From assembly GCA_028278555.1 (NCBI GenBank), contig JANQEA010000079.1:62001-126000 (forward strand): a stretch of 64,000 bases of DNA, written 5' to 3'. Below are positions 21,593-54,549 of this stretch, in pieces (the stretch's first letter is position 1; every line of letters starts with the position of its first letter). The notes below the pieces were generated by a model. It searched no databases. It was not told the origin of the DNA and saw nothing but the letters and a program-made list of their open reading frames with translations. Made by a program: the position numbers and the translations under genes. The DNA comes from Candidatus Bipolaricaulota bacterium. GTDB taxonomy: Bacteria > Bipolaricaulota > Bipolaricaulia > UBA7950 > UBA9294.

Positions 21593-23050
21593 CTACGACC
21601 CCTTCGGTGCGACCGCGTTGGTCAGCTCGCGGCCGCGCTTGCCGAGCTCGAACTCGCGGATATTCTCGATCGTCGTGTCAGCCATGTTCGCCTGCGCGAC
21701 GTCGGTCAGCGAACCCTGGTGCCCGGTGACCATCACATTGCCGAACGTTGTCAGGCGCGCGAGCGTGTCGTCGGCGATCACGCTGTCCGAGTGGTCTTTG
21801 TAGAAGTACTCGGCCTCCTCCTCGTAGACGTCGAGGCCGGCGTAGCCGATCTTCCCGCTCTTCAGTCCGTCGATCAGCGCCTCAGTATCGATCAGCCCGC
21901 CGCGGGCCGTGTTGATCAGCATGACGCCAGTCTTCATCGTCTCGATCGCGGTCGCGTCGATCATGTGATAGGTCTCCGGCGTCAACGGCGCGTGGATGCT
22001 GATCACGTCGGATTGCGCTAGCAGCTCATCGAGATCGACGAAGCGAACGCCGTAGGCGTCGATCAGATCCTGCTTTGCCGTCCGGCTGTACGCGAGGAGC
22101 TCGCAGCCGAACCCGTGGAGGACGCTCAGGAGGCAAGCGCCGATCTTCCCTGTTCCGACGACGCCGGCTGTCCGGCCGTGCATGTCGAACCCGACCAGCC
22201 CGCTCAGGGAGAAGTTGCCGTCTCGGACCCGGACGTGGGCGCGATGCGTCTTCCGATTGAGCGCCATCATCAGGGCGACCGCGTGCTCCGCTACGGCGTA
22301 CGGCGAGTAGGCTGGAACCCGTGCGACCGAGATCCCGAACCGCTCGCACGCTTCGAGATCGACGTTGTTGTATCCGGCGCACCGCATCGCAATCATCTCG
22401 ACTCCGACGGCGCTCAATCCCCTGATTACGTCCTCGTCGGCGCAGTCGTTCGCGCTGATGACGGTCACCGGGAAGTTGGTCGCCAGCGGGACGGTGTCGA
22501 GCTCGAGGCGAGGCGTGAAGAAGTGCATCGCGTAGTCGTACCGGTTCTTCTCGGTATAGAGCCGGTTCCGATACGGGCTGGCGTGGTAGAACGCGACGCG
22601 GAGGCCGTGCTCGACGTCGCGCGCGAGCAGGCGCGCGACCGTCGACGTCTCGCGGGCCAGGTGCCCCGACATGTAGGAGAGGAGCCCCTTGGCGACGCAC
22701 TGGTTGTCGGCGAGGAGTTGCTCGAACGCTTCGTAGCCGAGCGTCCAGGCCTTCACCTTGCTCGTGGCTCTGAGTGTCGCCGAGCGCGTCTTCTGGCCGA
22801 AGAGTCCCATCTCGCCCGCGACGTCGCCGGCCTTGAGGATCGTTACCTCGATCGGTTCCTCGTCCTCGACCGCTTTCAAGACCGCGACGTCGCCGGACTC
22901 GATCAGGAACATCCGATCGCCGGTCTCGCCCTCGCAGCAGAGATCCTCCCCGACTGCGAACGTTGCCGGCTCGAGGGCCGACTCCAGCGCTCCGAGCGCC
23001 TCTTCGTCGAGTTCGCAGAACAGCCGGACCTTCTTCAGAAGCTCGAGCAT
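21593..23050 (-). CDS. Cyclic-nucleotide-binding domain fused to D-lactate dehydrogenase
   Basis: 485 residues, about 150 longer than LdhA-type D-lactate dehydrogenases. Residues 1-130 form a CNB/cupin domain; its phosphate-binding cassette GEMGLFGQKTRSAT keeps the key Glu80 and Arg89, so ligand binding is plausible. Residues ~150-485 are LdhA-like: MRCAGYNNVDL, NAD loop GTGKIG at 299-304, and the catalytic triad Arg383 (NTARGG), a Glu in DVYEEE (410-412) and His444 (GHQ). It would reduce pyruvate to D-lactate with NADH, with activity possibly gated by a nucleotide or another ligand. GGGGG ribosome site precedes ATG 23050; single-gene unit. Confidence 0.93.
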   Translation of the reverse strand: MLELLKKVRLFCELDEEALGALESALEPATFAVGEDLCCEGETGDRMFLIESGDVAVLKAVEDEEPIEVTILKAGDVAGEMGLFGQKTRSATLRATSKVKAWTLGYEAFEQLLADNQCVAKGLLSYMSGHLARETSTVARLLARDVEHGLRVAFYHASPYRNRLYTEKNRYDYAMHFFTPRLELDTVPLATNFPVTVISANDCADEDVIRGLSAVGVEMIAMRCAGYNNVDLEACERFGISVARVPAYSPYAVAEHAVALMMALNRKTHRAHVRVRDGNFSLSGLVGFDMHGRTAGVVGTGKIGACLLSVLHGFGCELLAYSRTAKQDLIDAYGVRFVDLDELLAQSDVISIHAPLTPETYHMIDATAIETMKTGVMLINTARGGLIDTEALIDGLKSGKIGYAGLDVYEEEAEYFYKDHSDSVIADDTLARLTTFGNVMVTGHQGSLTDVAQANMADTTIENIREFELGKRGRELTNAVAPKGS

Positions 23051-23079
23051 GCGCTCCCCCTCATCGTTGGTGTGCGCCG

Positions 23080-23139: not shown

Positions 23140-24315
23140 TCAGGCGCTCTCGGGCTTCGGAAGCTCCTCGCGATAGGCGGTGATCAGGGCGGCGGCAGCG
23201 AGCGGGAGGAACGCGACGAAAGTCATCACCGAGATCAGTCCGAACCGGTCGGCGAGCCAGCCGATCGGCGTCAGCGCCAGACCGCCGACCCCCCACGCGG
23301 CCCCCATGACGAGGCCGGAGACGAGTCCGGTTCGCCCCGGCAGGCACTCCTGCGCAGCGACGACGCCGACCGGGATCGATGACAGACCGAAGAGGCCGGC
23401 CGCGGCGATGAAGACGAGAGCGACGGAGGCAGGACCGTAGAGGAAGAGGATGTAGAACGGCGTCGTCAGGACGAGGGCCGTCAGGATCACACGTTTCCGC
23501 CCGAACCGATCCGACAGGTTCCCGGCGAGGAATCCGGCCGCCGCGCCGGTCAGCAGGAAGATACTGATCGCTGCGGCGCCCGCGAACGGGGAACCGCCGC
23601 GTTCGGTCACGAGGACCGCGAGGAACGTCGCGAACGCCGTCGAGCAGGTGGAAGACAGGACGATCACGGACCAGAGGAGAACCAACCGAGACGGAAGCTC
23701 GCGAAGCCTCGTGCGTCCGGCGCTCGCTTGTCCCTTCGGGGGGAGCTCTCGCTGGAGAGGGAGCGCGAACGCCGCGACGAGCAACAGACCCGGAAGCATC
23801 AGCCACGGCGTTTGCAGGAGAGAGAACCGCTCGACGAACCCGACGATCACGATGGGGGCGACCGCTCCGCCGAGCGTTCCGCCCGAGGAGAAGAGTGCCA
23901 TCAGCAAGCCGTGTCGCTTCGGGCGACCGGCCCCGACCAGTGCCGCCGCCGCCGGGTGGAAGAGCGCGATCCCGATCCCGGAGGCGACCATGATCGCCAA
24001 GAGCTGTGGGAAGTTGCCAACCCGGCCGATGAACGACATCGCGAGGACGCTCACGAAAGGTCCCAATACGACCAACCATGGCCTCTGCACGCGATCGACC
24101 AAGTGCCCGAGCCCCGGTTGGAGGAGCGAGTTCGTGACGATACGGATCGTTCCGAGCGCACCGGCGAGCGCGAGCGACAGATCGAGCCGATCGATCAACA
24201 GTGGAAGCAGCGGCGCGTAGAAGTGGGCGAACCCATCATTCAGGAAGTGCCCGACGAACAGAAGGGCCGTCCGCTTCCACGGTGTGCGTGCTGGAGGATT
24301 TACAGGATCTGCCAT
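23140..24315 (-). CDS. MFS efflux transporter, Fsr (fosmidomycin-resistance)-like
   Basis: 391 residues with about 12 hydrophobic helices. The N-terminal VGHFLNDGFAHFYAPLLPLL is characteristic of the Fsr subgroup of major facilitator exporters, and LVDRVQRPW is the loop after helix 2. It probably exports small molecules or drugs. ATG 24315 lies only 11 nt from the nearest in-frame ATG of the opposite-strand MFS gene. Confidence 0.9.
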   Translation of the reverse strand: MADPVNPPARTPWKRTALLFVGHFLNDGFAHFYAPLLPLLIDRLDLSLALAGALGTIRIVTNSLLQPGLGHLVDRVQRPWLVVLGPFVSVLAMSFIGRVGNFPQLLAIMVASGIGIALFHPAAAALVGAGRPKRHGLLMALFSSGGTLGGAVAPIVIVGFVERFSLLQTPWLMLPGLLLVAAFALPLQRELPPKGQASAGRTRLRELPSRLVLLWSVIVLSSTCSTAFATFLAVLVTERGGSPFAGAAAISIFLLTGAAAGFLAGNLSDRFGRKRVILTALVLTTPFYILFLYGPASVALVFIAAAGLFGLSSIPVGVVAAQECLPGRTGLVSGLVMGAAWGVGGLALTPIGWLADRFGLISVMTFVAFLPLAAAALITAYREELPKPESA

Positions 24316-25735: not shown

Positions 25736-26488
25736 ATGATTCGACAGCTCGTCTCGGAGACGGTCCAAGAGAAGGCCTACCAGGCCATCAAGAACTCGAT
25801 TGTGAGGAACGAGCTCCTCCCAGGAGAATCGCTATCGATTGACGAACTGGCTCGCATCCTGGGGGTCAGCCAGACGCCAGTCCGGGAAGCACTGGCACGT
25901 CTGAGTGTGGAAGGTTTGGTCGAGCGAGCGCCGAACCGGACTGCAATCGTTTCGACCATCGAACTCGATGACATTCACCAAGCGTACGAGGTTCGCAAGC
26001 TGCTAGAGCCGTATGCAGTGAAGTGTATTGCCGAGAGGCTTCATACCCATCCTGAGATTGCTGAGAGCCTGACCGCAATCAAGGATGCAGCTTCGGAGAT
26101 CTTGGCGGTGTTGCCAAGAGACACAGCGTCCATCGAAACGCGCCAGTATGCAGCGTGCCAGGAGATCGACCTCCAGTTGCAGGAGCTGATGGTAACTACG
26201 CTCGCTGACAGCCTGTCCGGCCGGGTTCTGGCAATGGTGGGCAATTACTCACTGCGAATGCGATCGCTGGCAATCCTCGGTCTTCACAGTCAGGACATCA
26301 AGACGCTCCGATCCATCCTCATTCAGCATCTGGCGATTATCGATGCTCTCCTGGAAGAGAACGAGGCGGCGGCAGTCAGCGCTGTCACCGAACACCTCCT
26401 GAGTGCGGAGGCAAGAACGATCGAAGCTTTGCATGAAGCCGAGGCGACCGCCGTGGCGCATGGAACGATGGCAGCGCCAGAAGGCTAG
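25736..26488 (+). CDS. GntR-family regulator, FadR/FCD subgroup
   Basis: 250 residues. N-terminal winged helix-turn-helix at about 10-75 (LSIDELARILGVSQTPVREALARLSVEGLVE) and an all-helical FCD ligand domain (AYEVRKLLEPYAVKCIAERL). Such regulators respond to carboxylic acids, sugar acids or amino-acid derivatives. ATG 25736 has no ribosome site and directly follows the palindromic operator, so the mRNA is probably leaderless or nearly so. It heads the catabolic block that follows on the same strand. Confidence 0.93.
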   Translation: MIRQLVSETVQEKAYQAIKNSIVRNELLPGESLSIDELARILGVSQTPVREALARLSVEGLVERAPNRTAIVSTIELDDIHQAYEVRKLLEPYAVKCIAERLHTHPEIAESLTAIKDAASEILAVLPRDTASIETRQYAACQEIDLQLQELMVTTLADSLSGRVLAMVGNYSLRMRSLAILGLHSQDIKTLRSILIQHLAIIDALLEENEAAAVSAVTEHLLSAEARTIEALHEAEATAVAHGTMAAPEG

Positions 26489-26633
26489 TGGTGGGAAGGA
26501 GGAGGCCTCGAAGGATTGCGTGCGAGATTCCTTCTGACAGCGTGGCAATCTCGTTTGGTCAGGTGCGGATTCGTGGTTGAGTTGGCGTGTTCGCTTCGTG
26601 TGCCAAGACCCGGAGACAGGGAGGACAATCAGC

Positions 26634-27632
26634 ATGGATAACGATCGGATTGAGGTTCTGCTGGGCGGCATCGGATGTAGTGTGCCCCCAGGCACGAAGT
26701 GGCAGGGATTCTTGCGTGTAGAGGGTTTCTCCCCTGACTTCGATGTTCCGGTTGTCTTGACTCGTGGGAGCGAGCCAGGCCCAATCGCCGTTGTCATCGG
26801 CGGTATTCATGGCGGGGAGCACAACAGCATCGAGGGGCCCCGACGTGTCGCGTGCGATCTGGATCCGACTAAACTCAAAGGACTTGTCGCCATTGTCCCT
26901 GTCGCGAATCGGGCTGCCTTCCACGCGCGCTCGCACAATGGTTCGCCTCCAGATGGTCAGAATCTTGCGCGGCTCTTTCCCGGTTCTCCGGACGGAACCG
27001 CGCTTGAGAGAGTGGCATACGCAATCAGTTCGAAACTACTGCAGCACGCAGATGCAGTTCTCGAACTCCATGGTGCGGACGCCCTGGAGGTCATCATCCC
27101 CCACGTCTACGTCCCGGAGCACCAGCCTGGTCCTGGTGTGTCGGGTCAGAGACCATGGACGGAGTGGGATCTGGCCGACATGTATTGCATCGAGGTCATC
27201 GCGGCTACACCGCACAGAGACCCAGGCTCTCCAGTCAACGTGAGTGCATCTGCAGGAATACCCTCTATCCTCGCTGAGGCGGGGTCGGGTGATCTAGACG
27301 AGCATGCGATCCGCATCCACTACCGGGGGATCACCAATGTTCTGCGGCGCATGGGGATTCTCGCGGGATTGCCGCTCATCGATCAGCCTGCACGGCGCCG
27401 AGTGCGCTATTCGCGAGTTCAATCTCCCCGGTCGGGCTTCTTCTACCCCAAGGCCCGCGTGGGACAGCCGATTGAGAAGGACCAAGTCCTGGGCGAGGTC
27501 ACGGACTACTTCGGCCATGAGCGTGACCTCATCAGAGCGCCGGTGTCGGGTGTTGTTGGCTTCATCAAGAAGACGATGGCGACTAACGAGGGAAACGGGC
27601 TGTTCAGTATCGCGACGGATCTCAAAGACTAA
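26634..27632 (+). CDS. Zinc deacylase of the succinylglutamate desuccinylase/aspartoacylase (M14-like) family
   Basis: 332 residues. The zinc site reads GGIHGGEHNS (His and Glu of HxxE) with a later His in LELHGAD. The C-terminal about 75 residues (FFYPKARVGQPIEKDQVLGEV, APVSGVVG) form the small beta-hammerhead domain seen in this family. Members remove acyl groups from N-acyl amino acids or process related amides. ATG 26634 follows GGGAGG. With the binding protein and permeases downstream, it may release an amino acid from an imported N-acylated or peptide-like substrate. Confidence 0.88.
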   Translation: MDNDRIEVLLGGIGCSVPPGTKWQGFLRVEGFSPDFDVPVVLTRGSEPGPIAVVIGGIHGGEHNSIEGPRRVACDLDPTKLKGLVAIVPVANRAAFHARSHNGSPPDGQNLARLFPGSPDGTALERVAYAISSKLLQHADAVLELHGADALEVIIPHVYVPEHQPGPGVSGQRPWTEWDLADMYCIEVIAATPHRDPGSPVNVSASAGIPSILAEAGSGDLDEHAIRIHYRGITNVLRRMGILAGLPLIDQPARRRVRYSRVQSPRSGFFYPKARVGQPIEKDQVLGEVTDYFGHERDLIRAPVSGVVGFIKKTMATNEGNGLFSIATDLKD

Positions 27633-27739
27633 ACCATCCCTCCACTAGATCAGGGGAAGGCAGGTGGTTCATCGGAAACACAGCCCAGATCAGGAAGGAG
27701 GGGGTGAGACACGAAGTGGATCACGGAGGAGGTAGTCCG

Positions 27740-29272
27740 ATGAGGCAGAGCATACGGAAGGCAATAGCTTGCGCTGCCCTGAGCGGCCTGATGCTGATGT
27801 CGCTGGGAGTTGCTGCTGTTGCTCAGGTTTATGGGGGAACGCTGCGTGTTGGTTTGTCTGACGAGGTCACTCAGCTGGATCCGCACTTCACCAGTCAGCA
27901 GGCCCATGCTGAGATGATCGCTCGGAACGTCTACAATGGGTTGCTGAAGACGAATCCGGCCTGGGAAGTCCAGCCCGACCTAGCCGAGAGCTGGGAGGTC
28001 AGTGAGGATGGGCTGACGTGGACATTCCATCTGCGCGAAGGCGTGCGGTTCCACAACGGCGACCTATTCACCGCGGCGGATGTCAAGTTCTCACTCGAAC
28101 GACTGATCGACCCGGAGAGCGGTTCGACCCACGCTGGCGCATTTGATCCCAACCTGCAGGTTGGGATCGTCGACGACTACACGGTGGCGGTTACCTTGTC
28201 GATGCCCGACGCCGACTTGCTCGACAATTTGGCGGCTCCGAGCATCGCGATGGTGCCGAAGGCCGTCGTTGAGGCCAATGGGAATCTCAATGAGGTTGTC
28301 GTTGGGACGGGCCCGTTCTATCTAGCTGAGCGTCGAGTCGATGTGAAGACTGTCCTCGCGAGGAACCCGGAGTACTTTGAAGAGGGACTCCCGTATCTGG
28401 ATCGAATCGAGTACCGCATCATCCAGGATGACACGGCTCGTCTGGTAGCGCTTCGGATGGGAGAGGTGCACTTCATCGACCGGGTCCCGTGGCAGATGAT
28501 CGACGCGCTCGAGAGCGCGCAAGGAGTGAAGGCAGTCGGTGGTGCAGGCATCAACCTCCGAATCATGAGCCCGAACATCAACCGGGAGCCGTGGGATGAT
28601 CCACGTGTTCGCCAGGCGTTCTACATGGGCCTCAACAAGCAGGAGATTGTTGACGTCGTCCTTGCTGGCTATGGAGAGGCTTTGCTCGGAGGCGTGATTC
28701 CGTCGACGCTCGCGGGCCACAACCCCAATGCCTGCTACCCGGATGGAGATGTAGAAGGCGCCAAGGCCTTACTCGCAGAGGCCGGATATCCCGACGGTTT
28801 CACAACGAAGCTTCTGACATTCGGCGACATCCAAATCTACGTGGACTATGCGCAGATTGTTCGAGAGCAAGCGAAGCAGTTCGGCGTTACGGTCGAGCTT
28901 GAGCTGCTGGAGCTTGGGATTGTGCAAGCCCGCAGGGCCGAGCAGGACTTCGATCTGGTCGGAGCGGGAATCGGAGGTCTGACAAACTCCCATTCCTTCG
29001 TTGCCAACACCTACGGAATCGCCTCCAAGCGGAACTTCAACAAGTACGACGACCCGATCTTGGAGGACTTCCTGCTCCAGAGCAAGGCTGCAGCGACACA
29101 GGAGGAACGCAACACCATCCTGATCGAGGCTCAGGAGTACTTGTGCACGACCATGCCAGTGTTCCCACTGTTCAATGGGTATACGCACTGGGGGGTCAGT
29201 GACAAACTGAAGGGCTGGGAGTTCAATCCGGGCTACGTACAGTACTTCGGCGTTGTCTGGCTTGAGGACTAG
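27740..29272 (+). CDS. Peptide/nickel-type ABC substrate-binding protein (SBP_bac_5)
   Basis: 510-residue exported binding protein. ATG 27740 lies behind a strong GGAGGAGG (27725-27732) and gives a signal peptide ending near VAAVAQ. Family blocks include GGTLRVGL, LDPHFTSQQ, LAESWEVSEDGLTWTFHLREGVRFHNGD and NREPWDDPRVRQAF. It belongs with the DppBC-type permeases 117 nt downstream, across a strong stem-loop that may make this gene more highly expressed than the permeases. Ligand unknown. Confidence 0.95.
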   Translation: MRQSIRKAIACAALSGLMLMSLGVAAVAQVYGGTLRVGLSDEVTQLDPHFTSQQAHAEMIARNVYNGLLKTNPAWEVQPDLAESWEVSEDGLTWTFHLREGVRFHNGDLFTAADVKFSLERLIDPESGSTHAGAFDPNLQVGIVDDYTVAVTLSMPDADLLDNLAAPSIAMVPKAVVEANGNLNEVVVGTGPFYLAERRVDVKTVLARNPEYFEEGLPYLDRIEYRIIQDDTARLVALRMGEVHFIDRVPWQMIDALESAQGVKAVGGAGINLRIMSPNINREPWDDPRVRQAFYMGLNKQEIVDVVLAGYGEALLGGVIPSTLAGHNPNACYPDGDVEGAKALLAEAGYPDGFTTKLLTFGDIQIYVDYAQIVREQAKQFGVTVELELLELGIVQARRAEQDFDLVGAGIGGLTNSHSFVANTYGIASKRNFNKYDDPILEDFLLQSKAAATQEERNTILIEAQEYLCTTMPVFPLFNGYTHWGVSDKLKGWEFNPGYVQYFGVVWLED

Positions 29273-29302
29273 CTGAGAGAGCCGTATCGGAAAGGAACCG
29301 AT

Positions 29303-29346
29303 GGGATTTCGCCCGCATCCATGGAAGCATCAGCGGGCGGAATCCC
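29303..29346 (+). promoter_or_regulatory. Large intergenic stem-loop between binding protein and permease genes
   Basis: A 14-bp stem (29303-29316 with 29333-29346, one G-U pair) closing a 16-nt loop. It is not followed by a T-run, so it is unlikely to be a full terminator. In binding-protein operons such structures commonly stabilise the upstream message or act as partial terminators, setting a high ratio of binding protein to permease. Confidence 0.6.
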
Positions 29347-29389
29347 GTTCGGGTGAAGCAGCCGATCGACGCCGAGAGGGCTCACTTCC

Positions 29390-30337
29390 ATGACGTTCTC
29401 GTATCTGGTGCGCCGCATCCTCCAGACTGGGATCACCCTCTTCCTGATGAGCCTCATCGTATTCGGGGCGCTTCGCGCGATCCCCGGAGACGCGGCTGTC
29501 ATCCTGCTCGGCGAATACTATGGATTCGAGGAGGTCACTGTCCTGCGGGAGCGGATGGGACTCAACGATCCGGTGTATGTCCAGTATTTCCGTTGGATCG
29601 GAAGTGCCCTTCGGGGTGATCTCGGTGTGTCCTGGCGGAGCAACGAGTCCATCACGTATGAGTTAGCTCGCAGGCTTCCCGTGACGTTTCAGCTTGCATT
29701 GCTCGCCTTCTTCACCTCGATCCTCATCGCGCTTCCCGCCGGGTTGGTTTCCGCGGCCAAGCGGAACACATGGTTCGATCGAGGTGCGCGGGTGATCGCC
29801 CTGATTGGGATCTCGCTGCCAAATTTCTGGGTCGGCTTGATGCTGATCCTCGCGTTTGCGCTCTCTCTTCGCTGGATCCCGTCCGGAGGTTTTGTCAGTA
29901 TCAGCGAGGGCCTGGGGCCGTATCTTCGCGCCCTGGCCGCACCCGCCATCACGTTGGGCACAGCGATGGCCGCTAGCACGATGAGGATCACTCGTGCCTC
30001 TACGCTCGAAGCACTGAGCCAAGACTACATCCGGACAGCAAGATCCAAAGGGCTGCGCGAGTTCACCGTACTGACAGCTCACGCTTTCAAGAATGCGATG
30101 ATACCGATCCTGACCGTGATCGGTGTTCAATTCGGGTTGATGCTTGCTGGGTCCGTGGCAGTGGAAACGGTCTTCTCCATTCCTGGGGTGAGCCGCTTTC
30201 TCATCGATGGAGTCAACAATCGAGACTACCCTGTTGTCATGGCCACGGTGCTTGTGATAAGCCTCGGCTACATGATCGCGAACCTGATGGTGGATCTGTC
30301 TTACGCGATCATCGATCCAAGGATTCGGTATGAGTAG
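29390..30337 (+). CDS. dppB: Peptide/nickel ABC permease DppB-type
   Basis: 315 residues, six hydrophobic helices. N-terminal SYLVRRILQTGITLFLMSLIVF, then GDLGVSWRS and the ATPase-contact EAA loop DYIRTARSKGLREF are diagnostic of DppB. The stop lies 8 nt inside the next permease gene. Forms the heterodimeric channel with that protein. No ATPase genes follow, unlike the importer at the left end of the window. Confidence 0.95.
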   Translation: MTFSYLVRRILQTGITLFLMSLIVFGALRAIPGDAAVILLGEYYGFEEVTVLRERMGLNDPVYVQYFRWIGSALRGDLGVSWRSNESITYELARRLPVTFQLALLAFFTSILIALPAGLVSAAKRNTWFDRGARVIALIGISLPNFWVGLMLILAFALSLRWIPSGGFVSISEGLGPYLRALAAPAITLGTAMAASTMRITRASTLEALSQDYIRTARSKGLREFTVLTAHAFKNAMIPILTVIGVQFGLMLAGSVAVETVFSIPGVSRFLIDGVNNRDYPVVMATVLVISLGYMIANLMVDLSYAIIDPRIRYE

Positions 30338-31226
30338 ACGAACACGGTACGAAGGAAGAGTCCCCGACCGTGACGTGTCGCGGATTCGGCTTTGGCTTCG
30401 TGACGTTCGGCGCTTCTTCGACCCGCTGTCAACCGTTGCCGCGGCAATCGTAGTGCTGATCGTGCTCGCTGCCACATTCCCCGGAATCATTGCGCCGTAC
30501 GGCTACGAGGATATGAGTCTGCGGGAGCGTTTGCAGCCACCCAACTGGAGCCATCTTCTCGGAACGGACAATTTCGGACGAGATGTATTCAGTCGCCTGA
30601 TCTACGGCGCCGGGGTGTCCGTCTATATCGGCTTGGTGGCTGTGCTGATCGCTTCGACGGTAGGTGTAACGATCGGAGTCGTGTCAGGCTTCTACGGTGG
30701 GATGGTCGATGCCGTTCTCATGCGGCTCGTCGACGTTATGCTTTCATTCCCATCGATCCTGTTCGCACTGGTTTTGATCACTCTACTCGGGCCATCGGTG
30801 ATCAGCCTCGTCATCACGATGGGAATCATCTACTCGCCGCGGATGGCACGGCTGGCGCGGGCGGGCACACTCTCTGCGAAGAACGAAGTGTATGTGGAGT
30901 CAGCCCGCGCCATTGGCGTGCCCAACCGCAGAGTGTTGCTCCGATACATCCTCCCGAACATCGTGGGGCCTCTAGTCGTTCAGGCCAGTCTGCTGCTCCC
31001 GATCGCCATCCTTGTCGAGGCGACGCTGAGCTTCCTCGGGCTTGGGGTGCAACCTCCGACACCTTCATGGGGGGCGATGCTGAGCGCAGGTAGAGCCTAC
31101 ATGGAGATCGCCCCGTGGCTGACGATCTTCCCTGGCGCTGCTATAGCGATCATCGTGCTTTCAGTGAACCTGCTTGGGGATGCTGCGCAGGATTGGGCGA
31201 ATCCGCGACTAAGGCGAAGGCTATGA
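30330..31226 (+). CDS. dppC: Peptide/nickel ABC permease DppC-type
   Basis: 298 residues, six helices. GTDNFGRDVFSRLIYGA and the EAA loop YVESARAIGVPNRRV are typical, as is the TLSFLGLGVQPP block. It overlaps dppB by 8 nt. Complete counterpart of the truncated permease at the left edge. The next gene is a small unknown protein, not a DppD ATPase, so this pair must borrow ATPases from elsewhere, for example DppDF at 654-2607. Confidence 0.95.
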   Translation: MSRRTRYEGRVPDRDVSRIRLWLRDVRRFFDPLSTVAAAIVVLIVLAATFPGIIAPYGYEDMSLRERLQPPNWSHLLGTDNFGRDVFSRLIYGAGVSVYIGLVAVLIASTVGVTIGVVSGFYGGMVDAVLMRLVDVMLSFPSILFALVLITLLGPSVISLVITMGIIYSPRMARLARAGTLSAKNEVYVESARAIGVPNRRVLLRYILPNIVGPLVVQASLLLPIAILVEATLSFLGLGVQPPTPSWGAMLSAGRAYMEIAPWLTIFPGAAIAIIVLSVNLLGDAAQDWANPRLRRRL

Positions 31227-31278: not shown

Positions 31279-31653
31279 ATGGAGTTGAAGGCGTTCGTGG
31301 CCGGCAACGTCGAGGGCGCGATGAAGAGGCTGCGGGAAGGATTGGAGAGTGCGGGATTCGTTTTCTCGGAGACGGATCGATCCTATCTTCTCACTCGGCC
31401 CGACACCGGAGGCATCAACCAGCATTTGTGCGGCTCGACATTCTGGGCAAGGAAGCAGCTATCCGCCCCCCAGCCGCGATCGCATGCGATCGAGATTGAA
31501 GGTGCGATCTCGACCGCCGAGGAGTTAGTCTGTGTGCGGGTCGACCTCTGTGAGTTTCACGGGCAACGGAAGCATTCGTTCGGCGGAAGCCAAGCGCTGG
31601 AGACGTTCGTTGAATCGTTCAGCCGCATGCTCTTTGAGCCGCCATCAACATGA
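31279..31653 (+). CDS. Small protein of unknown function upstream of AOR3
   Basis: 124 residues, soluble, no family recognised. Two Cys (one in HLCGSTFW, one in RVDLCEFHG) and a central beta-rich part are visible. ATG 31279 has AAAGGAG at a good distance. AOR3 begins 28 nt after its stop, so the two are translated from the same message. It occupies the place where AOR2 has its ferredoxin, but has no cluster motif. A maturation or substrate-handling partner of AOR3 is a guess. Confidence 0.75.
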   Translation: MELKAFVAGNVEGAMKRLREGLESAGFVFSETDRSYLLTRPDTGGINQHLCGSTFWARKQLSAPQPRSHAIEIEGAISTAEELVCVRVDLCEFHGQRKHSFGGSQALETFVESFSRMLFEPPST

Positions 31654-31681
31654 GCACAACGTTTTGGGAGGAGGAACGCAC

Positions 31682-33520
31682 ATGACCTTTGGGCGATACC
31701 TAGATGTTGACCTCAGTGCCAGAACGATCCAGGATTATCGGATTCCCGAGGACTGGACTCGCATGTACATGGGGGGGCGAGGAATCGGCGCTCGCATACT
31801 TCTGTCCGAACTCCCGAGAGGCGCTGATCCGCTTGGGCCGGACAACGTTTTAGTGTTCGGGACAGGCCCGCTTGCTGGGACCGGATTCCCCGGAGCATCC
31901 CGCAATGTCGTGATGGCGAAGTCGCCTAAGACGGGGAGCGTCAGCGGGTCCTATGTTGGTGGATACTTCCCGCATGCTCTTGGCAACTCCGCATACGACG
32001 GCATCCTTTTTCGCGAGCAGTCCGAAGTGCCGTGCTATCTGACCCTTGTTGACGGGAAGGCCGAACTCCATGAAGCCTCGGAACTCTGGGGGCTGGGAGT
32101 TGGAGAGACCGTAGACAGATTGGTTGCCCTGCACGGGAGGGAAGCCAAGGTTTCCTGCATCGGACCGGCGGGCGAGCGGTTGGTGCGATGTGCTGCCGTG
32201 ATCAATGACCGAAATCGTGCAGCGGGCCGCCCGGGCTTCGGAGCTGTGATGGGATCGAAACTCCTGAAAGCGGTAGTCGTTGTAGGGAACGTCCCGAAGC
32301 CCATTCGGGACGCGGAGAAGCTTCGGGAGATCACGAAACGGCTTGTCGTCTCGCTGTCGGAGAACCCTGGGACGAAACGGATGCATGAGCTTGGCACATG
32401 CACTGGGATCCTTGGAAACAACGAGCGTGGAATCCTCCCGACACGGAATTTCAAGGAGGGCTGGTTCGACAGCGCAGAAAAAATCAGCGCAGAGGTGTTG
32501 CGCGAAACGATCCTTACCGAGCCCGACACGTGTACTGGGTGCCCGATCCGCTGCAAGAGAGTCGTCGAGACGGAGTTTCGTGGGGAGAAGGTCACTCCGG
32601 GATTCGGCGGGCCTGAGTACGAGACGGTCGCCGCCTTCGGACCGCTCTGCCTCGTAGACAATCTCGACGCTATTGCTCTGGCCAATCAGAAGTGCAACGA
32701 CTATGGACTCGATACGATCAGCGTGGGAAACCTCATCGCGATGGTCATGGAAGCATGCGAGGTGGGCATTCTCGACGAAGGACTCTCGTGGGGGGACGCA
32801 TCCGGCTTGGTCGACATGGTTGACAAGATCGGCAATCGCGAAGGGATTGGCGACGTCCTCGCGGATGGCATCGAACATGCGTCCGCCAAGTACGGGATTG
32901 ACTTCGCTGTTCACGTGAAAGGTCAAGAGGTTCCGCTCCACGAACCTCGAGGTAAGAAGGCGATCGGGCTCCAATACGCGGTCAGCCCGCGCGGCGCCGA
33001 GCACATGGAGGCGATGCACGACACGGAACTCGAGGCGGATTGCCCGCTGCCTTCCTACGGGGTTTCCGAGTCGATGGATCGGCTCTCCTGGGATGGGAAG
33101 CCGGCGGTCACCGTGACGTATGAGAACATCCGATCATTCCTCAACTCGGCGATCACCTGTGTGTTCCCCATACGCGACGCTGGCTACGAGATCTCGTTAC
33201 CCATGCTGAGAGAGGCAATCCAGGCGGTCGTAGGACTTGAGATTGACAAGCAGGGGCTCGTCGACATCGGGGCACGGAACTGGAATCTCCTGAAGATCCA
33301 TGTTGCCAGAGAAGGGGCAACCCGAGCCGATGACGACCTGCCGTCGCGTCTCAAGCAAGCCATCTCCAAGGGCTCCTGTGATGGGCAAGCAATCCCTGAT
33401 GATGTTCTACAGCAGCAAATCGACGAGTACTACACCTTGCGGGGTTGGGACGACAAGGGACCGACCAAGGAGACGCTCCGGAGACTCGCCATGCAGGAGG
33501 TCGAATCATTCCTGCCGTAA
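31682..33520 (+). CDS. Tungsten-containing aldehyde:ferredoxin oxidoreductase AOR3
   Basis: 612 residues. [4Fe-4S] ligands are Cys284, Cys287, Cys291 (CTGCPIRC) and Cys493 (AITCVF). Pterin landmarks MGGRGIGARIL, CIGPAGERL, NRAAGRPGFGAVMGSK and CNDYGLDTIS are present. It is clearly more distant from AOR1/AOR2 than they are from each other, and its codon use is that of the island. GGGAGGAGG precedes ATG 31682. With the downstream aminotransferase and amine dehydrogenase it could oxidise aldehydes formed from amino acids. Confidence 0.95.
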   Translation: MTFGRYLDVDLSARTIQDYRIPEDWTRMYMGGRGIGARILLSELPRGADPLGPDNVLVFGTGPLAGTGFPGASRNVVMAKSPKTGSVSGSYVGGYFPHALGNSAYDGILFREQSEVPCYLTLVDGKAELHEASELWGLGVGETVDRLVALHGREAKVSCIGPAGERLVRCAAVINDRNRAAGRPGFGAVMGSKLLKAVVVVGNVPKPIRDAEKLREITKRLVVSLSENPGTKRMHELGTCTGILGNNERGILPTRNFKEGWFDSAEKISAEVLRETILTEPDTCTGCPIRCKRVVETEFRGEKVTPGFGGPEYETVAAFGPLCLVDNLDAIALANQKCNDYGLDTISVGNLIAMVMEACEVGILDEGLSWGDASGLVDMVDKIGNREGIGDVLADGIEHASAKYGIDFAVHVKGQEVPLHEPRGKKAIGLQYAVSPRGAEHMEAMHDTELEADCPLPSYGVSESMDRLSWDGKPAVTVTYENIRSFLNSAITCVFPIRDAGYEISLPMLREAIQAVVGLEIDKQGLVDIGARNWNLLKIHVAREGATRADDDLPSRLKQAISKGSCDGQAIPDDVLQQQIDEYYTLRGWDDKGPTKETLRRLAMQEVESFLP

Positions 33521-49978: not shown

Positions 49979-52675
49979 CTACGATACCCGCTCCAGACGG
50001 CAGGCGGCCACCTTCAACTCGGGGATCTTCGCCTTCGGGTCGAGGGCGTCGTTCGTCAGGCGATTCGCCGCCGCCTCGACGAAGTGGAACGGGATAAAGA
50101 TCGCCCCTTCGCCGACGCGTCCGTTCGCGACCGCCTTGGTGACGATCTCGCCGCGCCGCGTGATCACGCGGACCTGCTCGCCCTCCGTGACGCCGATCTT
50201 CTCCAGATCGGCTGGATGGATCTCGGCGTAGGCCTCGCTGACGTAGGCATTCAGCGCGTCGGAGCGGCGGCTCATCGAGCCGGTATGGAAGTGCTCGAGG
50301 ATCCGGCCGGTCGAGAGGACGATCGGGTACTCGTCGTCCGGCAGCTCCTCGGAGGCCCGGTATTCGACCGGATGGAACTTCCCGAGCCCGCGGCGGAACT
50401 GGCCCTCATGAAGGAAGACGGTCCCCGGATGGTCGTCGTCCGCGCAGGGCCATTGGAGGCCGTCCGGCTCGAGTCGGTGGTGGTGGATCCCGCCGTAGAT
50501 CGGCGAGACGGAGGCGATCTCGTCCATGATCGCCTCCGCGTTCTCGAAGGCCATCGGCAGGCCGAGCCTCGACGCAAGCTCGCAGAGGATCTTCCAGTCG
50601 TGTCGCGCTTCGCCGGGCGGCTCGACGGCCGGATGGACCATCAACACACGGCGTTCGGTGTTGGTGAAGGTTCCTATCGTCTCGGCGAAAGAGGCGGCCG
50701 GCAGAACGACATCGGCGAGCTGGGCCGTCTCCGTCAGGAAGATGTCCTGGACGACGAGGAAGTCGAGCGCCTTCAGCGCTTCCTCGACATGGTTCAGGTT
50801 CGGGTCGGAGATCATCGGGTTCTCGCCCATGATCAGCATTCCCTTGAGCTTCCCTTCGGCCGCCGCATGCATCATCTCGACGATCGTCAGGCCGACACTT
50901 GGAGAGAGATCCCTCCCCCAAGCCGACTCGAACTTCGCCCGAACGTCGGGATCGTCGACCTTCTGGTAGCCGGGGTAGACGTTCGGTAGGGCGCCGAGGT
51001 CGCAAGCCCCCTGCACGTTGTTCTGCCCCCGGAGCGGGTTGACTCCAGAGGATTCCTTCCCGATCGAGCCGGTCAGCATCGCCAGGTTGGCGAGAGAAAG
51101 GACGTTGTCGGTCCCGTGGGTGTGCTGGGTGATCCCCATCGAGTAGACGATCGAGGCTTTGTCAGCAGATGCATAGAGGCGGGCCGCCTCGGCGAGCTTC
51201 TGCGCCGGGATGCCGCTGATCTCGGCCGCGCGATCGAGGGTGAACGCCTCGATCATCGGTCGGAGTTCGTCGAACCGCTCGGTCCGGTCGGCGATGAAGG
51301 CATCGTCCTGCAGACCCTCCTGCAGAATGACGTGCATCATCCCGTAGAGCCATGCGACGTCCGTCCCGCCCCGCTGCCGGAGCCATAGGTCCGCGTGGCG
51401 GACCAGGTCGATCCGACGCGGATCGATGACGATCAGCTTGGCGCCGTGGTAGTGGACAGCCCGCTTGATCAGCGATGCAATGACCGGATGCGTCTCGGTG
51501 GTGTTCGAGCCGGTGACGAGGATGCACTCCGCAAACTCGAGCTCGGCGATCGAGTTGGTCATCGCGCCCGACCCGAACGCGGCGGCGAGGCCGGCGACGG
51601 TCGACGCATGACAGAGACGAGCGCAGTGATCGACGTTGTTCGTTCCGATTCCGGCTCTGATCAGCTTCTGGAAGAGGTAGTTCTCCTCGTTCGTGCACGT
51701 CGCCGAGGAGAGACCGCCGATCGCGCCCGGTCCGTGCTCGGCCTTGATCCCCGACAGGCGCGACGCGACCAGATCGAGCGCTTCGTCCCAGGTCGCCTCG
51801 ACGAACGCGCCGTCGCGCTTGATCAGCGGTGTCGTCAGCCGATCGTCCGCCTGGATGTAGTTGTGCCCGAATCGTCCCTTGACGCAGGTCGAGCCGTAGT
51901 TCGGGATCGCATCCGAACCGGTGACGTTGACGATCCGGCCGTCGTGCGTCCAGAGATCGAGACGACAGCCGACGCCGCAATACGAGCACGTCGTTTGCGT
52001 CGACTCCAGCTCCCACGTCCTCGCCGGTCGGACGTCGAGCTTCTCGCGGATCGCGCCGGTCGGGCAGAGCTGAACGCACTCGCCGCACCCGTCGCAATCG
52101 GAGCCGCCCCAGTCGGTCGGGCCGGCGGTGACGACCGTCTGCAGGCCGCGATGGGCGTAGCTCAGGATCTCCTTCCCCTGAATCTCGTCGCACGCTTTGA
52201 TGCAGCGCTCGCAGGCGATGCACTTCGACGCGTCATAGACGAGGACCGGCGATGACGCGTCTTCGGGAGGGATCTCTCGAACGGGCGCTCTGAATCGCCG
52301 CGTCCGTTCGTCGAGTCCATATCGATAGGCAAGATCCTGCAGTTCGCATCGTCCGGACGACTCGCAGACGAGGCAGTCGCAGTTGTGGTCGGCAAGCAGA
52401 AGCTCGATCAGCGTCCGCCGGGCGGACTCGAGCTCCTCGTCGAACGCCGTGATCGAGAGTCCCTCCTCCGCCTCGAGCTGGCAGGCCGGGATCCACTTCC
52501 GGCGTCCCTCGACCTTCACGTCGCAGAGCCGACAGCTCCCGGTGACGGAGAGCCTCGGGTGATAGCAGAGGCCCGGGATCTCGATCCCATTCGAGTGCGC
52601 GACCTCGAGGACGTTCGCCCCGGGCTCGGCTTCAAGAGTCCTTCCGTCGATCGCGAAGCTCACGCGCTCGCTCAT
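49979..52675 (-). CDS. fdhA: NAD-linked formate dehydrogenase catalytic subunit, Cys form
   Basis: 898 residues. N-terminal [2Fe-2S] domain (GLCYHPRLSVTGSCRLC), the His-Cys cluster (DHNCDCLVCESSGRC), two [4Fe-4S] clusters (CIACERCIKAC, CDGCGECVQLCP), then the Mo/W domain with CSYCGVGC. The active-site residue is Cys355 (ARLCHASTVAGL) where other enzymes have selenocysteine. Interconverts CO2 and formate. ATG 52675 overlaps the NuoF-type gene (ATGA), giving a NuoE-NuoF-FdhA complex that works with NADH and possibly ferredoxin. The first step of the methyl branch, next to fhs. Confidence 0.94.
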   Translation of the reverse strand: MSERVSFAIDGRTLEAEPGANVLEVAHSNGIEIPGLCYHPRLSVTGSCRLCDVKVEGRRKWIPACQLEAEEGLSITAFDEELESARRTLIELLLADHNCDCLVCESSGRCELQDLAYRYGLDERTRRFRAPVREIPPEDASSPVLVYDASKCIACERCIKACDEIQGKEILSYAHRGLQTVVTAGPTDWGGSDCDGCGECVQLCPTGAIREKLDVRPARTWELESTQTTCSYCGVGCRLDLWTHDGRIVNVTGSDAIPNYGSTCVKGRFGHNYIQADDRLTTPLIKRDGAFVEATWDEALDLVASRLSGIKAEHGPGAIGGLSSATCTNEENYLFQKLIRAGIGTNNVDHCARLCHASTVAGLAAAFGSGAMTNSIAELEFAECILVTGSNTTETHPVIASLIKRAVHYHGAKLIVIDPRRIDLVRHADLWLRQRGGTDVAWLYGMMHVILQEGLQDDAFIADRTERFDELRPMIEAFTLDRAAEISGIPAQKLAEAARLYASADKASIVYSMGITQHTHGTDNVLSLANLAMLTGSIGKESSGVNPLRGQNNVQGACDLGALPNVYPGYQKVDDPDVRAKFESAWGRDLSPSVGLTIVEMMHAAAEGKLKGMLIMGENPMISDPNLNHVEEALKALDFLVVQDIFLTETAQLADVVLPAASFAETIGTFTNTERRVLMVHPAVEPPGEARHDWKILCELASRLGLPMAFENAEAIMDEIASVSPIYGGIHHHRLEPDGLQWPCADDDHPGTVFLHEGQFRRGLGKFHPVEYRASEELPDDEYPIVLSTGRILEHFHTGSMSRRSDALNAYVSEAYAEIHPADLEKIGVTEGEQVRVITRRGEIVTKAVANGRVGEGAIFIPFHFVEAAANRLTNDALDPKAKIPELKVAACRLERVS

Positions 52676-54549
52676 GCCGACACCCCCTTCGCGGTTCGGA
52701 TGACGGCGTCGAATGGGCAGGCCTCGAAGCACGCACCGCATTTCACGCACGTCGCGAGATCGATCGTGTATGGAGGCTGTCCGAGCGTTCCGCTCGCCGC
52801 TCCGGTCGGGCACGCGGTCGCGCACTTCCCGCACGCCTTGCAGGCGTCCGGGTCGATGGCGTACGCGCCGACGAGCGCCTTGCAGGAGCCGGCAGGACAG
52901 ATGCCCTCCTCGATGTGGGCGCGATACTCGTCCTCGAAGTAGTGCAATGTCGAGAGGACGGGATTCGGCGCTGTTTGCCCGAGGCCGCAGAGGGCGGTCG
53001 AGCAGATGACAGAGGCCAGCTCTCGGAGCTGCTCGATATCCTCCGGGACGCCCTCTCCCTCCGTGATCCGAGTGAGGATCTCGAGCATCGCCGGAACGCC
53101 GAGACGACACGGCGCGCACTTCCCACAGGATTCGCTGGCAGTGAAGTCGAGGAAGAAGCGGGCGACGTCGACCATGCAGGACGTGTCGTCGAGGACGATG
53201 ATGCCGCCGGAGCCCATTGTCGCGTCGTGTTCGCTGAGCGACTCGTAGTCGACCGGAAGGTCGAGGAGCGACTCGGGGAGACACCCGCCCGACGGCCCTC
53301 CGGTCTGGACCGCCTTGAACGATCGTCCGTCCGGGATGCCGCCACCGATGTCGAAGACGATCTGTCGGATCGTCGTTCCCATCGGAACCTCAACGAGCCC
53401 GTTGTTCTCGACCTTGCCGGTCAGGGAGAAGACCTTGGTCCCTGTGCTCGTCTCCGTCCCGATTCCGGCGAACCACTCAGCGCCGCGGAGAATGATCGCC
53501 GGCACGTTGGCGAACGTCTCGACGTTGTTGAGCACGGTCGGCTTCCCCCAGAGGCCGTGCTCGACGGAGCGAGGAGGAGTGAGGCGCGGCATCCCGCGCC
53601 TCCCCTCGATCGAGTACATCAGGGCCGTCGACTCCCCGCAGACGAACGCGCCCGCGCCTTCCATCACGTGGACGTCAACGGAGAAGTCGGTTCCGAGGAC
53701 GTTCTCTCCGATGAGACCGAGCTCGCGCGCGTCGTCGATTGCCTTGCGGATGTGCTCGACGGCGAGCGGATACTCGGCGCGAACGTAGACGTGCGCCTCC
53801 GAAGACCCGACGGCGTGACAGGCGATCAGCATTCCCTCGAGGATCGCGTGCGGCGTCGCCTCGATCAGGGATCGATCCATGAACGCGCCCGGATCCCCCT
53901 CGTCTCCGTTGCAGATGACGTACTTCGGCACGGCCTCCTGCTTCCGGCATCCGGCCCACTTTCGGCCCGTTGGGAAACCGGCGCCGCCACGCCCTCGGAG
54001 CCCGGAGCGGGTCATCTCGTCGATGATCTTCTCCGGCGTCATCTCAAGGAGGGCTTTGGCCAGCGCCTGATAGCCATCGTAGGCGATGTAGTCCCCGATC
54101 GATGTCGGGTCGATCTTCCCGTTCAGGGCGAACGCGATCCGCTCCTGGCCCTTGTAGAAGCGGATGCCGTCGCGCTTCGCGACCCGTTCTTTCGTGATCG
54201 GATCCTCGAGGAGGAGTTCGTCGACCAGTCCGCCCTGTTCGATCGCCTGGACGATCCGCTCGGCATCCTCCGGCGAGATGGTCGGATAGAGGGTGCCCTC
54301 GGGCTCCACGACAACGAGCGGTCCGCGCTGGCAGTAGCCCTGACAGCCGGTCGGCATGACGTCGATCCGGTCGCTGAGCCCGCGCTGATCGATCGCCGCG
54401 GCCAGCGCCTCCTTCACCTCGACGCCCCCGCAGGCTCGGCATCCAGTCCCATTACAGACCGTAATCCGGTGCTCGAACGCGTCGAGCCGGGCGAGGTTCG
54501 CTTGCTTGAGCTCATCCAGCATTTCACGGGACGTGATCTTCACGCTCAT
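52672..54549 (-). CDS. NuoF-type diaphorase subunit of the formate dehydrogenase
   Basis: 625 residues: an N-terminal thioredoxin-like [2Fe-2S] part (CNGTGCRACGG, CQGYCQRGP), the FMN/NADH domain (GLRGRGGAGFPTGRKW, CNGDEGDPGAFMDR), the [4Fe-4S] site ESCGKCAPCRLG, and a C-terminal 2[4Fe-4S] ferredoxin (CKACGKCATACP, CVKCGACFEACP). The same layout as HydB/HytB of bifurcating enzymes. ATGA overlaps on both sides with nuoE and fdhA. Closely similar to the other NuoF here (61356-63236). Confidence 0.95.
   Translation of the reverse strand: MSVKITSREMLDELKQANLARLDAFEHRITVCNGTGCRACGGVEVKEALAAAIDQRGLSDRIDVMPTGCQGYCQRGPLVVVEPEGTLYPTISPEDAERIVQAIEQGGLVDELLLEDPITKERVAKRDGIRFYKGQERIAFALNGKIDPTSIGDYIAYDGYQALAKALLEMTPEKIIDEMTRSGLRGRGGAGFPTGRKWAGCRKQEAVPKYVICNGDEGDPGAFMDRSLIEATPHAILEGMLIACHAVGSSEAHVYVRAEYPLAVEHIRKAIDDARELGLIGENVLGTDFSVDVHVMEGAGAFVCGESTALMYSIEGRRGMPRLTPPRSVEHGLWGKPTVLNNVETFANVPAIILRGAEWFAGIGTETSTGTKVFSLTGKVENNGLVEVPMGTTIRQIVFDIGGGIPDGRSFKAVQTGGPSGGCLPESLLDLPVDYESLSEHDATMGSGGIIVLDDTSCMVDVARFFLDFTASESCGKCAPCRLGVPAMLEILTRITEGEGVPEDIEQLRELASVICSTALCGLGQTAPNPVLSTLHYFEDEYRAHIEEGICPAGSCKALVGAYAIDPDACKACGKCATACPTGAASGTLGQPPYTIDLATCVKCGACFEACPFDAVIRTAKGVSA

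What the first reader, a model, noticed from the sequence alone, without database searches (positions are those of the whole stretch)
21593..23050. D-lactate dehydrogenase fused to a cyclic-nucleotide-binding domain
Seen: one continuous frame with CNB at 1-130, keeping the cassette Glu80 and Arg89, then a full LdhA-like enzyme with Arg/Glu/His triad. Known: CNB domains usually regulate transcription factors, kinases or channels. A fermentative dehydrogenase under direct nucleotide control would be a new way to switch pyruvate between lactate and acetyl-CoA.
Basis: partly seen in the sequence, partly recalled or inferred. Interest (0 to 1): 0.68.

Follow-up and report, generated by a model that had tools for sequence, protein, structure and literature searches.

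The report
Lactate-type dehydrogenase with cyclic-nucleotide sensor
An enzyme of the D-lactate dehydrogenase family carries a built-in cyclic-nucleotide (cAMP-type) sensor, the same fused gene occurs in bacteria of about five phyla, and most copies, this one included, appear to have changed to NADPH as cofactor, so it is probably a metabolic enzyme switched directly by a second messenger.

Summary
In detail: 21593-23050(-) is one 485-codon frame with a canonical cyclic-nucleotide-binding (CNB) domain (Glu80, Arg89, Gly44 intact), a conserved linker, then a complete fermentative-type D-lactate dehydrogenase (Arg383/Glu412/His444). It is not an assembly accident. Ten genomes labelled as five phyla carry the fusion, and their dehydrogenase halves form one clade (97/85 support, 98% of bootstraps), so it arose once and spread. 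The window's genome has two class III cyclases with all adenylate-type catalytic residues. In Auribacterota a lactate permease lies 25 bp upstream. (1) The Asp that selects NAD, present in 96/96 unfused relatives, is lost in 8/10 fusions. The window reads Tyr-Ser-Arg-Thr, the loop used to engineer an NADPH-using D-LDH, so NADP(H) use is likely. (2) The window's lineage alone changed three otherwise near-invariant positions (F199S, V200A, F447S), the last probably in the substrate pocket, so pyruvate/lactate is not secure. Two further signalling captures of this enzyme turned up: a second CNB fusion, and a receiver-domain fusion beside histidine kinases. I found no description of a CNB-D-LDH in the literature held. 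Ligand binding and its effect on activity are inferred, not shown.

The parts
21593..23050 (-). CNB-D-2-hydroxyacid dehydrogenase fusion gene, 485 aa
   Evidence: full-length homologues
22661..23050 (-). CNB domain, residues 1-130
   Evidence: Pfam PF00027 66.3 bits; PDB sequence matches led by PKA/PKG regulatory CNB domains; CNB-type strands and helices in the AF2 model
22778..22816 (-). phosphate-binding cassette G79-E80-...-R89-S90-A91
   Evidence: E80 and R89 invariant in the fused clade at 43% mean CNB identity
22607..22660 (-). linker helices, residues 131-148, with conserved L131, R133, T135, A139, L141
   Evidence: low-confidence in both AF2 models
21635..22606 (-). FLDH-type D-2-hydroxyacid dehydrogenase, residues 149-472
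   Evidence: best PDB match 5z20 P. aeruginosa D-LDH, E 3e-101; Foldseek 5z20, TMt about 0.9
22139..22156 (-). dinucleotide-binding GxGxxG, residues 299-304
   Evidence: alignment
22079..22090 (-). cofactor-selecting loop Y321-S322-R323-T324 (Asp in unfused relatives)
   Evidence: D in 96/96 unfused relatives, lost in 8/10 fusions; same YSRT loop engineered for NADPH in PMC4842997
22451..22456 (-). S199-A200, replacing F199-V200 of relatives
   Evidence: F 96/96 and V 95/96 in unfused relatives; S/A only in the four Bipolaricaulota-family fusions
21710..21712 (-). S447, replacing the aromatic residue aligned with L. pentosus D-LDH Phe299
   Evidence: aromatic in 96/96 unfused relatives; Phe299 role from memory
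21902..21904 (-). catalytic Arg383
   Evidence: invariant
21815..21817 (-). catalytic Glu412
   Evidence: invariant
21719..21721 (-). catalytic His444
   Evidence: invariant
23054..23062 (-). Shine-Dalgarno-like GAGGGGGAG before the ATG
23140..24315 (-). MFS transporter, same strand, ends 89 bp upstream of the fusion; candidate operon partner
   Evidence: PF07690 121 bits; weak, sub-cut-off match to an L-lactate MFS model

Best explanation
A soluble D-2-hydroxyacid dehydrogenase of the fermentative D-LDH (FLDH) family put under direct allosteric control by an N-terminal cyclic-nucleotide sensor. Proposed cycle: class III cyclases make cAMP (cGMP not excluded); it docks in the CNB pocket, its ribose on Glu80 and its phosphate on Arg89; the C-terminal CNB helix and conserved linker (about 106-146) re-pack and change the open/closed balance of the dehydrogenase, which in this family is a tetramer with K-type cooperativity. 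I think it more likely that the nucleotide relieves inhibition by the CNB than that it inhibits (about 60:40, guess). The reaction is reversible reduction of a 2-oxoacid to a D-2-hydroxyacid: pyruvate/D-lactate in clade members with an unaltered pocket; in the window's lineage the substrate is uncertain. Cofactor in the window protein is most likely NADPH or both NADH and NADPH. Shown: domains, intact binding and catalytic residues, conservation, single origin of the fusion, cofactor-loop change, cyclases in the genome. Inferred: ligand binding, its identity, its effect and direction, NADPH use, substrate.
For: Both domains complete and far above cut-offs. E80, R89, G79, A91 and G44 invariant in the fused clade while the CNB part averages only 43% identity; G44 and R89 match the beta2-beta3 Gly and phosphate Arg that PMC2246266 reports as co-evolved in CNB domains that couple cAMP binding to distant sites. 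Linker residues conserved too. One clade of ten fusions, 97/85, 98% of bootstraps. Two cyclases in the same genome with intact catalytic residues of the adenylate type (D, D, K, D, N, R), and all nine fusion-bearing genomes searched have class III cyclases. In three sister genomes (genus g3) a tandem class III cyclase gene lies about 2.6 kb from the fusion, convergent. Lactate permease 25 bp upstream in L024. Cofactor loop: D in 96/96 unfused, Y-S-R-T here, the loop that raised NADPH kcat/Km 184-fold in an engineered D-LDH (PMC4842997). FLDH enzymes are tetramers with unidentified physiological effectors (PMC4230899).
Against: No binding or activity data. Cyclases are common in this family of genomes (31 of 33) and in 65/100 of the phylum, so co-occurrence is weak evidence. 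Both AF2 models leave the linker at low confidence, so no domain contact can be claimed. The loss of Asp322 is probably one event on the tree, so the Fisher p of 1.5e-10 overstates independence. F199S, V200A and F447S in the window's lineage argue against plain pyruvate/lactate chemistry there.
Confidence: 0.62

Rival explanations
1. The CNB domain is only structural (oligomerisation, localisation or membrane docking); it no longer signals, or binds something other than a cyclic nucleotide.
For: CNB scaffolds can lose or change ligand (FNR, CooA types, PMC2246266). A separate CNB fusion (L145) has lost the Glu, Gly-Leu instead of Gly-Glu.
Against: E80, R89, G44 invariant across the clade despite 43% CNB identity; the pocket motif is canonical.
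Confidence: 0.17
2. The domain binds a cyclic nucleotide but the enzyme is not a lactate dehydrogenase in this lineage: it is an NADPH-linked reductase of another 2-oxoacid (larger or more polar), controlled by cAMP. (A sub-case of the best explanation with the substrate question decided against pyruvate.)
For: F199S, V200A and F447S only in the four Bipolaricaulota-family fusions, near-invariant elsewhere; YSRT loop shared with the NADP-bound glyoxylate reductase used as template in PMC4842997; neighbour is a generic MFS transporter, not LctP.
Against: Everything else in the active site is FLDH-like and the protein nests within FLDHs.
Confidence: 0.35
3. An in-frame accident of assembly or a decaying gene, without biological meaning.
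For: One sister genome (G014) has frameshifts in the CNB half.
Against: Same architecture at 54-70% identity in independent assemblies from several phyla; CNB half under purifying constraint in the window/G002 pair, pN 0.28 against pS 0.80, the latter saturated.
Confidence: 0.02

Closest known systems
Fermentative D-lactate dehydrogenases (LdhA type: P. aeruginosa 5z20, E. coli 5z1z, F. nucleatum 5z21; PMC4230899)
   Same: Whole catalytic and NAD-binding fold, R/E/H triad, 48-49% identity to 5z20; the family is allosteric and tetrameric
   Different: Known ones have no additional domain (stated in PMC4230899) and the 96 unfused relatives sampled keep the NAD-selecting Asp; this one has a CNB domain and Ser-Arg-Thr
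CNB-regulated bacterial enzymes, e.g. mycobacterial cAMP-controlled acetyltransferase Pat (NCBIfam NF058543 matches residues 9-116 at 51 bits; regulation of Pat by cAMP from memory)
   Same: N-terminal CNB domain in front of a metabolic or modifying enzyme, same intended logic
   Different: Output domain unrelated (GNAT against D-2-hydroxyacid dehydrogenase)
PKA regulatory subunit / CRP-type CNB domains
   Same: Canonical phosphate-binding cassette with Glu and Arg and the beta2-beta3 Gly-Asp
   Different: Output is an oxidoreductase, not a kinase inhibitor, channel or DNA-binding domain; not among the families in the passages read of the 2007 CNB survey, which nowhere uses the word dehydrogenase
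Phosphoglycerate dehydrogenase with ACT/ASB domains
   Same: A D-2-hydroxyacid dehydrogenase with an added small-molecule-sensing domain and tetramer allostery (PMC4230899)
   Different: Senses L-serine through ACT domains; end-product control, not second-messenger control
Engineered NADPH-using D-LDH (D176S/I177R/F178T, PMC4842997)
   Same: YSRT cofactor loop identical to residues 321-324 here
   Different: Laboratory mutant of an unfused Lactobacillus enzyme

Membership tests
Cyclic-nucleotide-binding domain, cNMP-binding type | Profile match over PF00027 cut-off | tested here: met
   66.3 bits against 27.5
Cyclic-nucleotide-binding domain, cNMP-binding type | Glu and Arg of the phosphate-binding cassette, conserved among orthologues | tested here: met
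   E80, R89 invariant in the fused clade
Cyclic-nucleotide-binding domain, cNMP-binding type | beta2-beta3 loop Gly co-evolved with that Arg | tested here: met
   G44 invariant; rule from PMC2246266
Cyclic-nucleotide-binding domain, cNMP-binding type | Measured cyclic-nucleotide binding | not testable with these tools
   needs protein
Fermentative D-lactate dehydrogenase (FLDH) | Sequence and fold nested among FLDH enzymes | tested here: met
Fermentative D-lactate dehydrogenase (FLDH) | Catalytic Arg/Glu/His and GxGxxG | tested here: met
Fermentative D-lactate dehydrogenase (FLDH) | NAD-selecting Asp at the end of Rossmann beta2 | tested here: not met
   Ser322-Arg323-Thr324 instead; D in 96/96 unfused relatives. 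Hence filed as a member of the FLDH sequence family, not claimed as an NADH-dependent LDH
Fermentative D-lactate dehydrogenase (FLDH) | Substrate-side-chain aromatic (Phe299 of L. pentosus numbering) | tested here: not met
   Ser447; aromatic in 96/96 unfused relatives and in all fusions outside the window's lineage
Fermentative D-lactate dehydrogenase (FLDH) | Pyruvate reduction to D-lactate | not testable with these tools
   needs assay
cAMP-signalling system in the host | Cyclase with two metal Asp, Lys/Asp base-selecting pair, Asn/Arg transition-state pair | tested here: met
   G000 C62 (L101) and C82 (L102), read by eye

The most novel reading that the evidence does not exclude
A horizontally spread enzyme class in which cAMP directly gates an NADPH-linked D-2-hydroxyacid dehydrogenase, the fusion coming first and the cofactor switch second, so that a second messenger sets flow between the NADPH pool and a 2-oxoacid/2-hydroxyacid couple without any transcription step; related enzymes were independently put under a receiver domain (two-component control) elsewhere.
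Probability: 0.45. Interest if true: 0.78.

Novelty: new variant of a known kind. Interest (0 to 1): 0.62.

Why it matters
Bacterial cyclic nucleotides are mostly thought to act through transcription factors; direct metabolic-enzyme effectors are few. A conserved, multi-phylum CNB-dehydrogenase would add a fast, post-translational output of cAMP in central redox metabolism. It also offers a natural test of how an allosteric enzyme whose physiological effector is unknown (the authors of PMC4230899 say the effectors of FLDHs remain uncertain) can be given one by domain capture, and of why a cofactor change from NAD to NADP followed. All proteins are single-chain and small, so the question can be settled in vitro.

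Tried and rejected
1) Chance or chimera: rejected by homologues. 2) Long open frames in front of other FLDH genes as further fusions: 19 stretches were fetched and read and judged by eye to hold only antisense or low-complexity open frames; only CNB (10 + L145), receiver (L146) and one histidine-phosphatase read-through (L179) were real domains. 3) Cyclase co-occurrence as proof of function: rejected as proof, because cyclases are near-universal in the family. 6) Literature for a CNB-LDH or REC-LDH: none found in the library held; many subscription papers are missing from it, so absence is weak. 7) Synteny as universal support: neighbours are not conserved between phyla; only the sister genus shares the nearby tandem cyclase, and only L024 shows a lactate permease. 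8) Promoter/terminator scan: nothing above shuffles.

Full report
1. What is there. The minus-strand frame 21593-23050 encodes 485 residues. It starts at an ATG preceded by GAGGGGGAG. Pfam finds cNMP_binding at 30-115 (66.3 bits) and both 2-hydroxyacid dehydrogenase domains over 157-473. The dehydrogenase half is closest to solved fermentative D-LDHs: P. aeruginosa 5z20, E = 3e-101 and 48-49% identity with target TM-score about 0.9 for the AF2 model. The CNB half is closest to PKA and PKG regulatory domains.

2. Not an accident. Full-length homologues were found in G002 = L021 (70%), L022 (59%), L023 (58%), L143 (58%), L025 (57%), L024 (55%) and L169 (54%); G021/L026 has it split over two contigs and G014 has it with frameshifts in the CNB half. 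Record titles and search groups place these in Bipolaricaulota (the window's own group), Lentisphaerota/Verrucomicrobiota, Omnitrophota, Auribacterota and Planctomycetota. Titles of metagenome bins can be wrong; the genome of L022, for example, is 14.1 Mb and probably mixed. Frequency is low: 4 of 100 genomes in the window's phylum, confined to two genera, with no unfused FLDH at this threshold in the others; 2 of 392, 2 of 388, 1 of 44 and 1 of 7 in the other groups sampled.

3. One origin. In a careful tree of 91 FLDH dehydrogenase domains the ten CNB fusions form a single clade with 97/85 support, present in 98% of bootstrap trees. One fusion event followed by spread between phyla is the simplest reading. 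G102 carries both the fusion and an unfused paralogue.

4. The sensor looks alive. The CNB halves share only 43% mean identity, against 63% for the dehydrogenase halves, yet E80, R89, G79, A91, G44, E40 and G41 never change within the clade. PMC2246266 defines the canonical cassette by the Arg that holds the cAMP phosphate and reports its co-evolution with the beta2-beta3 Gly that passes the signal on; both are kept. Linker positions L131, R133, T135, A139 and L141 are also invariant. Ser or Thr follows the Arg; I do not read ligand choice from this.

5. The ligand is available. G000 has three class III cyclase genes. The single-domain ones at C62 and C82 keep, read by eye, both metal Asp, the Lys and Asp of adenylate type and the Asn/Arg pair. 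All nine fusion-bearing genomes searched have cyclases, but so do 31 of 33 in this family, so this shows opportunity only. In the sister genus a tandem cyclase-AAA-TPR gene lies about 2.6 kb from the fusion. In the window's genome the same beta-helix, tandem-cyclase and GAF cluster stands without the fusion.

6. The enzyme is not a plain NADH-LDH. In D-LDHs an Asp after Rossmann beta2 selects NAD. All 96 unfused relatives have it; eight of ten fusions have Ser, Ala, Thr or Asn followed by Arg or Lys. The window reads YSRT. PMC4842997 replaced YDIFR by YSRTR in a Lactobacillus D-LDH, copying an NADP-bound glyoxylate reductase, and raised NADPH kcat/Km 184-fold, with NADH activity kept. So dual use or NADPH preference is the expectation. 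The two fusions that keep the Asp (L169, L024) branch first, and the inner eight have 97/84 support, so the fusion probably came before the cofactor change. This is one event, and the Fisher value must not be read as independent evidence.

7. The substrate is open. The four Bipolaricaulota-family fusions have S199, A200 and S447, where relatives have F (96/96), V (95/96) and an aromatic (96/96). Residue 447 aligns with Phe299 of L. pentosus D-LDH, which from memory contacts the substrate side chain; 199-200 lie at the end of a strand next to the conserved Asn-Asp, and their contact with substrate is my inference. Other clade members keep all three, and in L024 an LctP-family permease (360 bits, cut-off 341) ends 25 bp upstream. 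I read the ancestral fused enzyme as acting on pyruvate/D-lactate and treat the window's enzyme as uncertain. Its upstream neighbour is an MFS transporter (23140-24315, 89 bp gap) of no sure specificity.

8. How it probably works. FLDHs are tetramers with K-type cooperativity and no known physiological effector (PMC4230899). The CNB C-helix runs on through the linker to the first strand of the catalytic domain in the AF2 model, but the linker (128-146) is below pLDDT 50. I propose that nucleotide binding re-packs this helix and shifts the open/closed balance; sign unknown, activation favoured 60:40 by guess.

9. Parallel cases. L145 (G398) is a second CNB-FLDH outside the clade in the quick tree, with the Glu lost (GL for GE), perhaps a different ligand. 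L146/L219 (G236) joins a receiver domain (66 bits) to an FLDH, followed on the same strand by a Cache-HAMP-histidine kinase and a receiver-histidine kinase. The same enzyme family has thus been given signalling inputs at least three times.

10. Novelty. No paper on a CNB-D-LDH was found among 5.4 million open papers; the 2007 CNB survey does not use the word dehydrogenase. The principle (CNB controlling an enzyme) is known, so this is a new variant of a known kind.

Noticed in passing
L219:6035-7429(-) (= L146; G236, Planctomycetota search group): D-LDH fused to an N-terminal response-regulator receiver domain, followed on the same strand by a Cache-HAMP-HisKA kinase and a receiver-HisKA protein: a dehydrogenase apparently under two-component control.
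   Followed up: partly
L145:729-2276(-) (G398): Independent CNB-D-LDH fusion that has lost the cassette Glu (AGLTS for AGEMG) but keeps the Arg and the NAD Asp; possibly a different ligand.
   Followed up: partly
L138:7200-9432 (G000 C62): Adenylate-type cyclase (minus strand) divergent from a stand-alone CNB protein, followed by a metallo-beta-lactamase-fold protein with a weak match to the cyclic-nucleotide-degrading Apyc1 family: a possible make-sense-degrade module.
   Followed up: partly
L137:5138-12821 (G000 C35); L021:3122-10876; L026:1067-8733; L136:7216-14788: Conserved cluster of a secreted beta-helix/PKD protein convergent with a tandem cyclase-AAA-TPR protein and a GAF protein; in the sister genus the CNB-LDH gene sits beside it, in the window's genome it does not.
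   Followed up: partly
L179:658-2523(+) (G614): One open frame joining a phosphoglycerate-mutase-like histidine phosphatase to a D-LDH; near relatives of the LDH half were not checked for it, so it may be read-through between neighbours.
   Followed up: no
L136:5315-7062 (G014): The CNB half of the fusion is frameshifted while the LDH frame is intact: sequencing error or decay of the sensor.
   Followed up: no
window 25736-31226(+): GntR regulator, AstE/AspA-type hydrolase and an oligopeptide-type ABC transporter (binding protein and two permeases) in a row: a likely catabolic cassette next to the fusion.
   Followed up: no
window 31532-33520(+) and 49979-53284(-): Aldehyde:ferredoxin oxidoreductase, and a formate-dehydrogenase-like molybdopterin subunit with NuoG-type N-terminus near further Nuo-like genes: ferredoxin/NAD(P) redox machinery relevant to an NADPH-linked reductase.
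   Followed up: no
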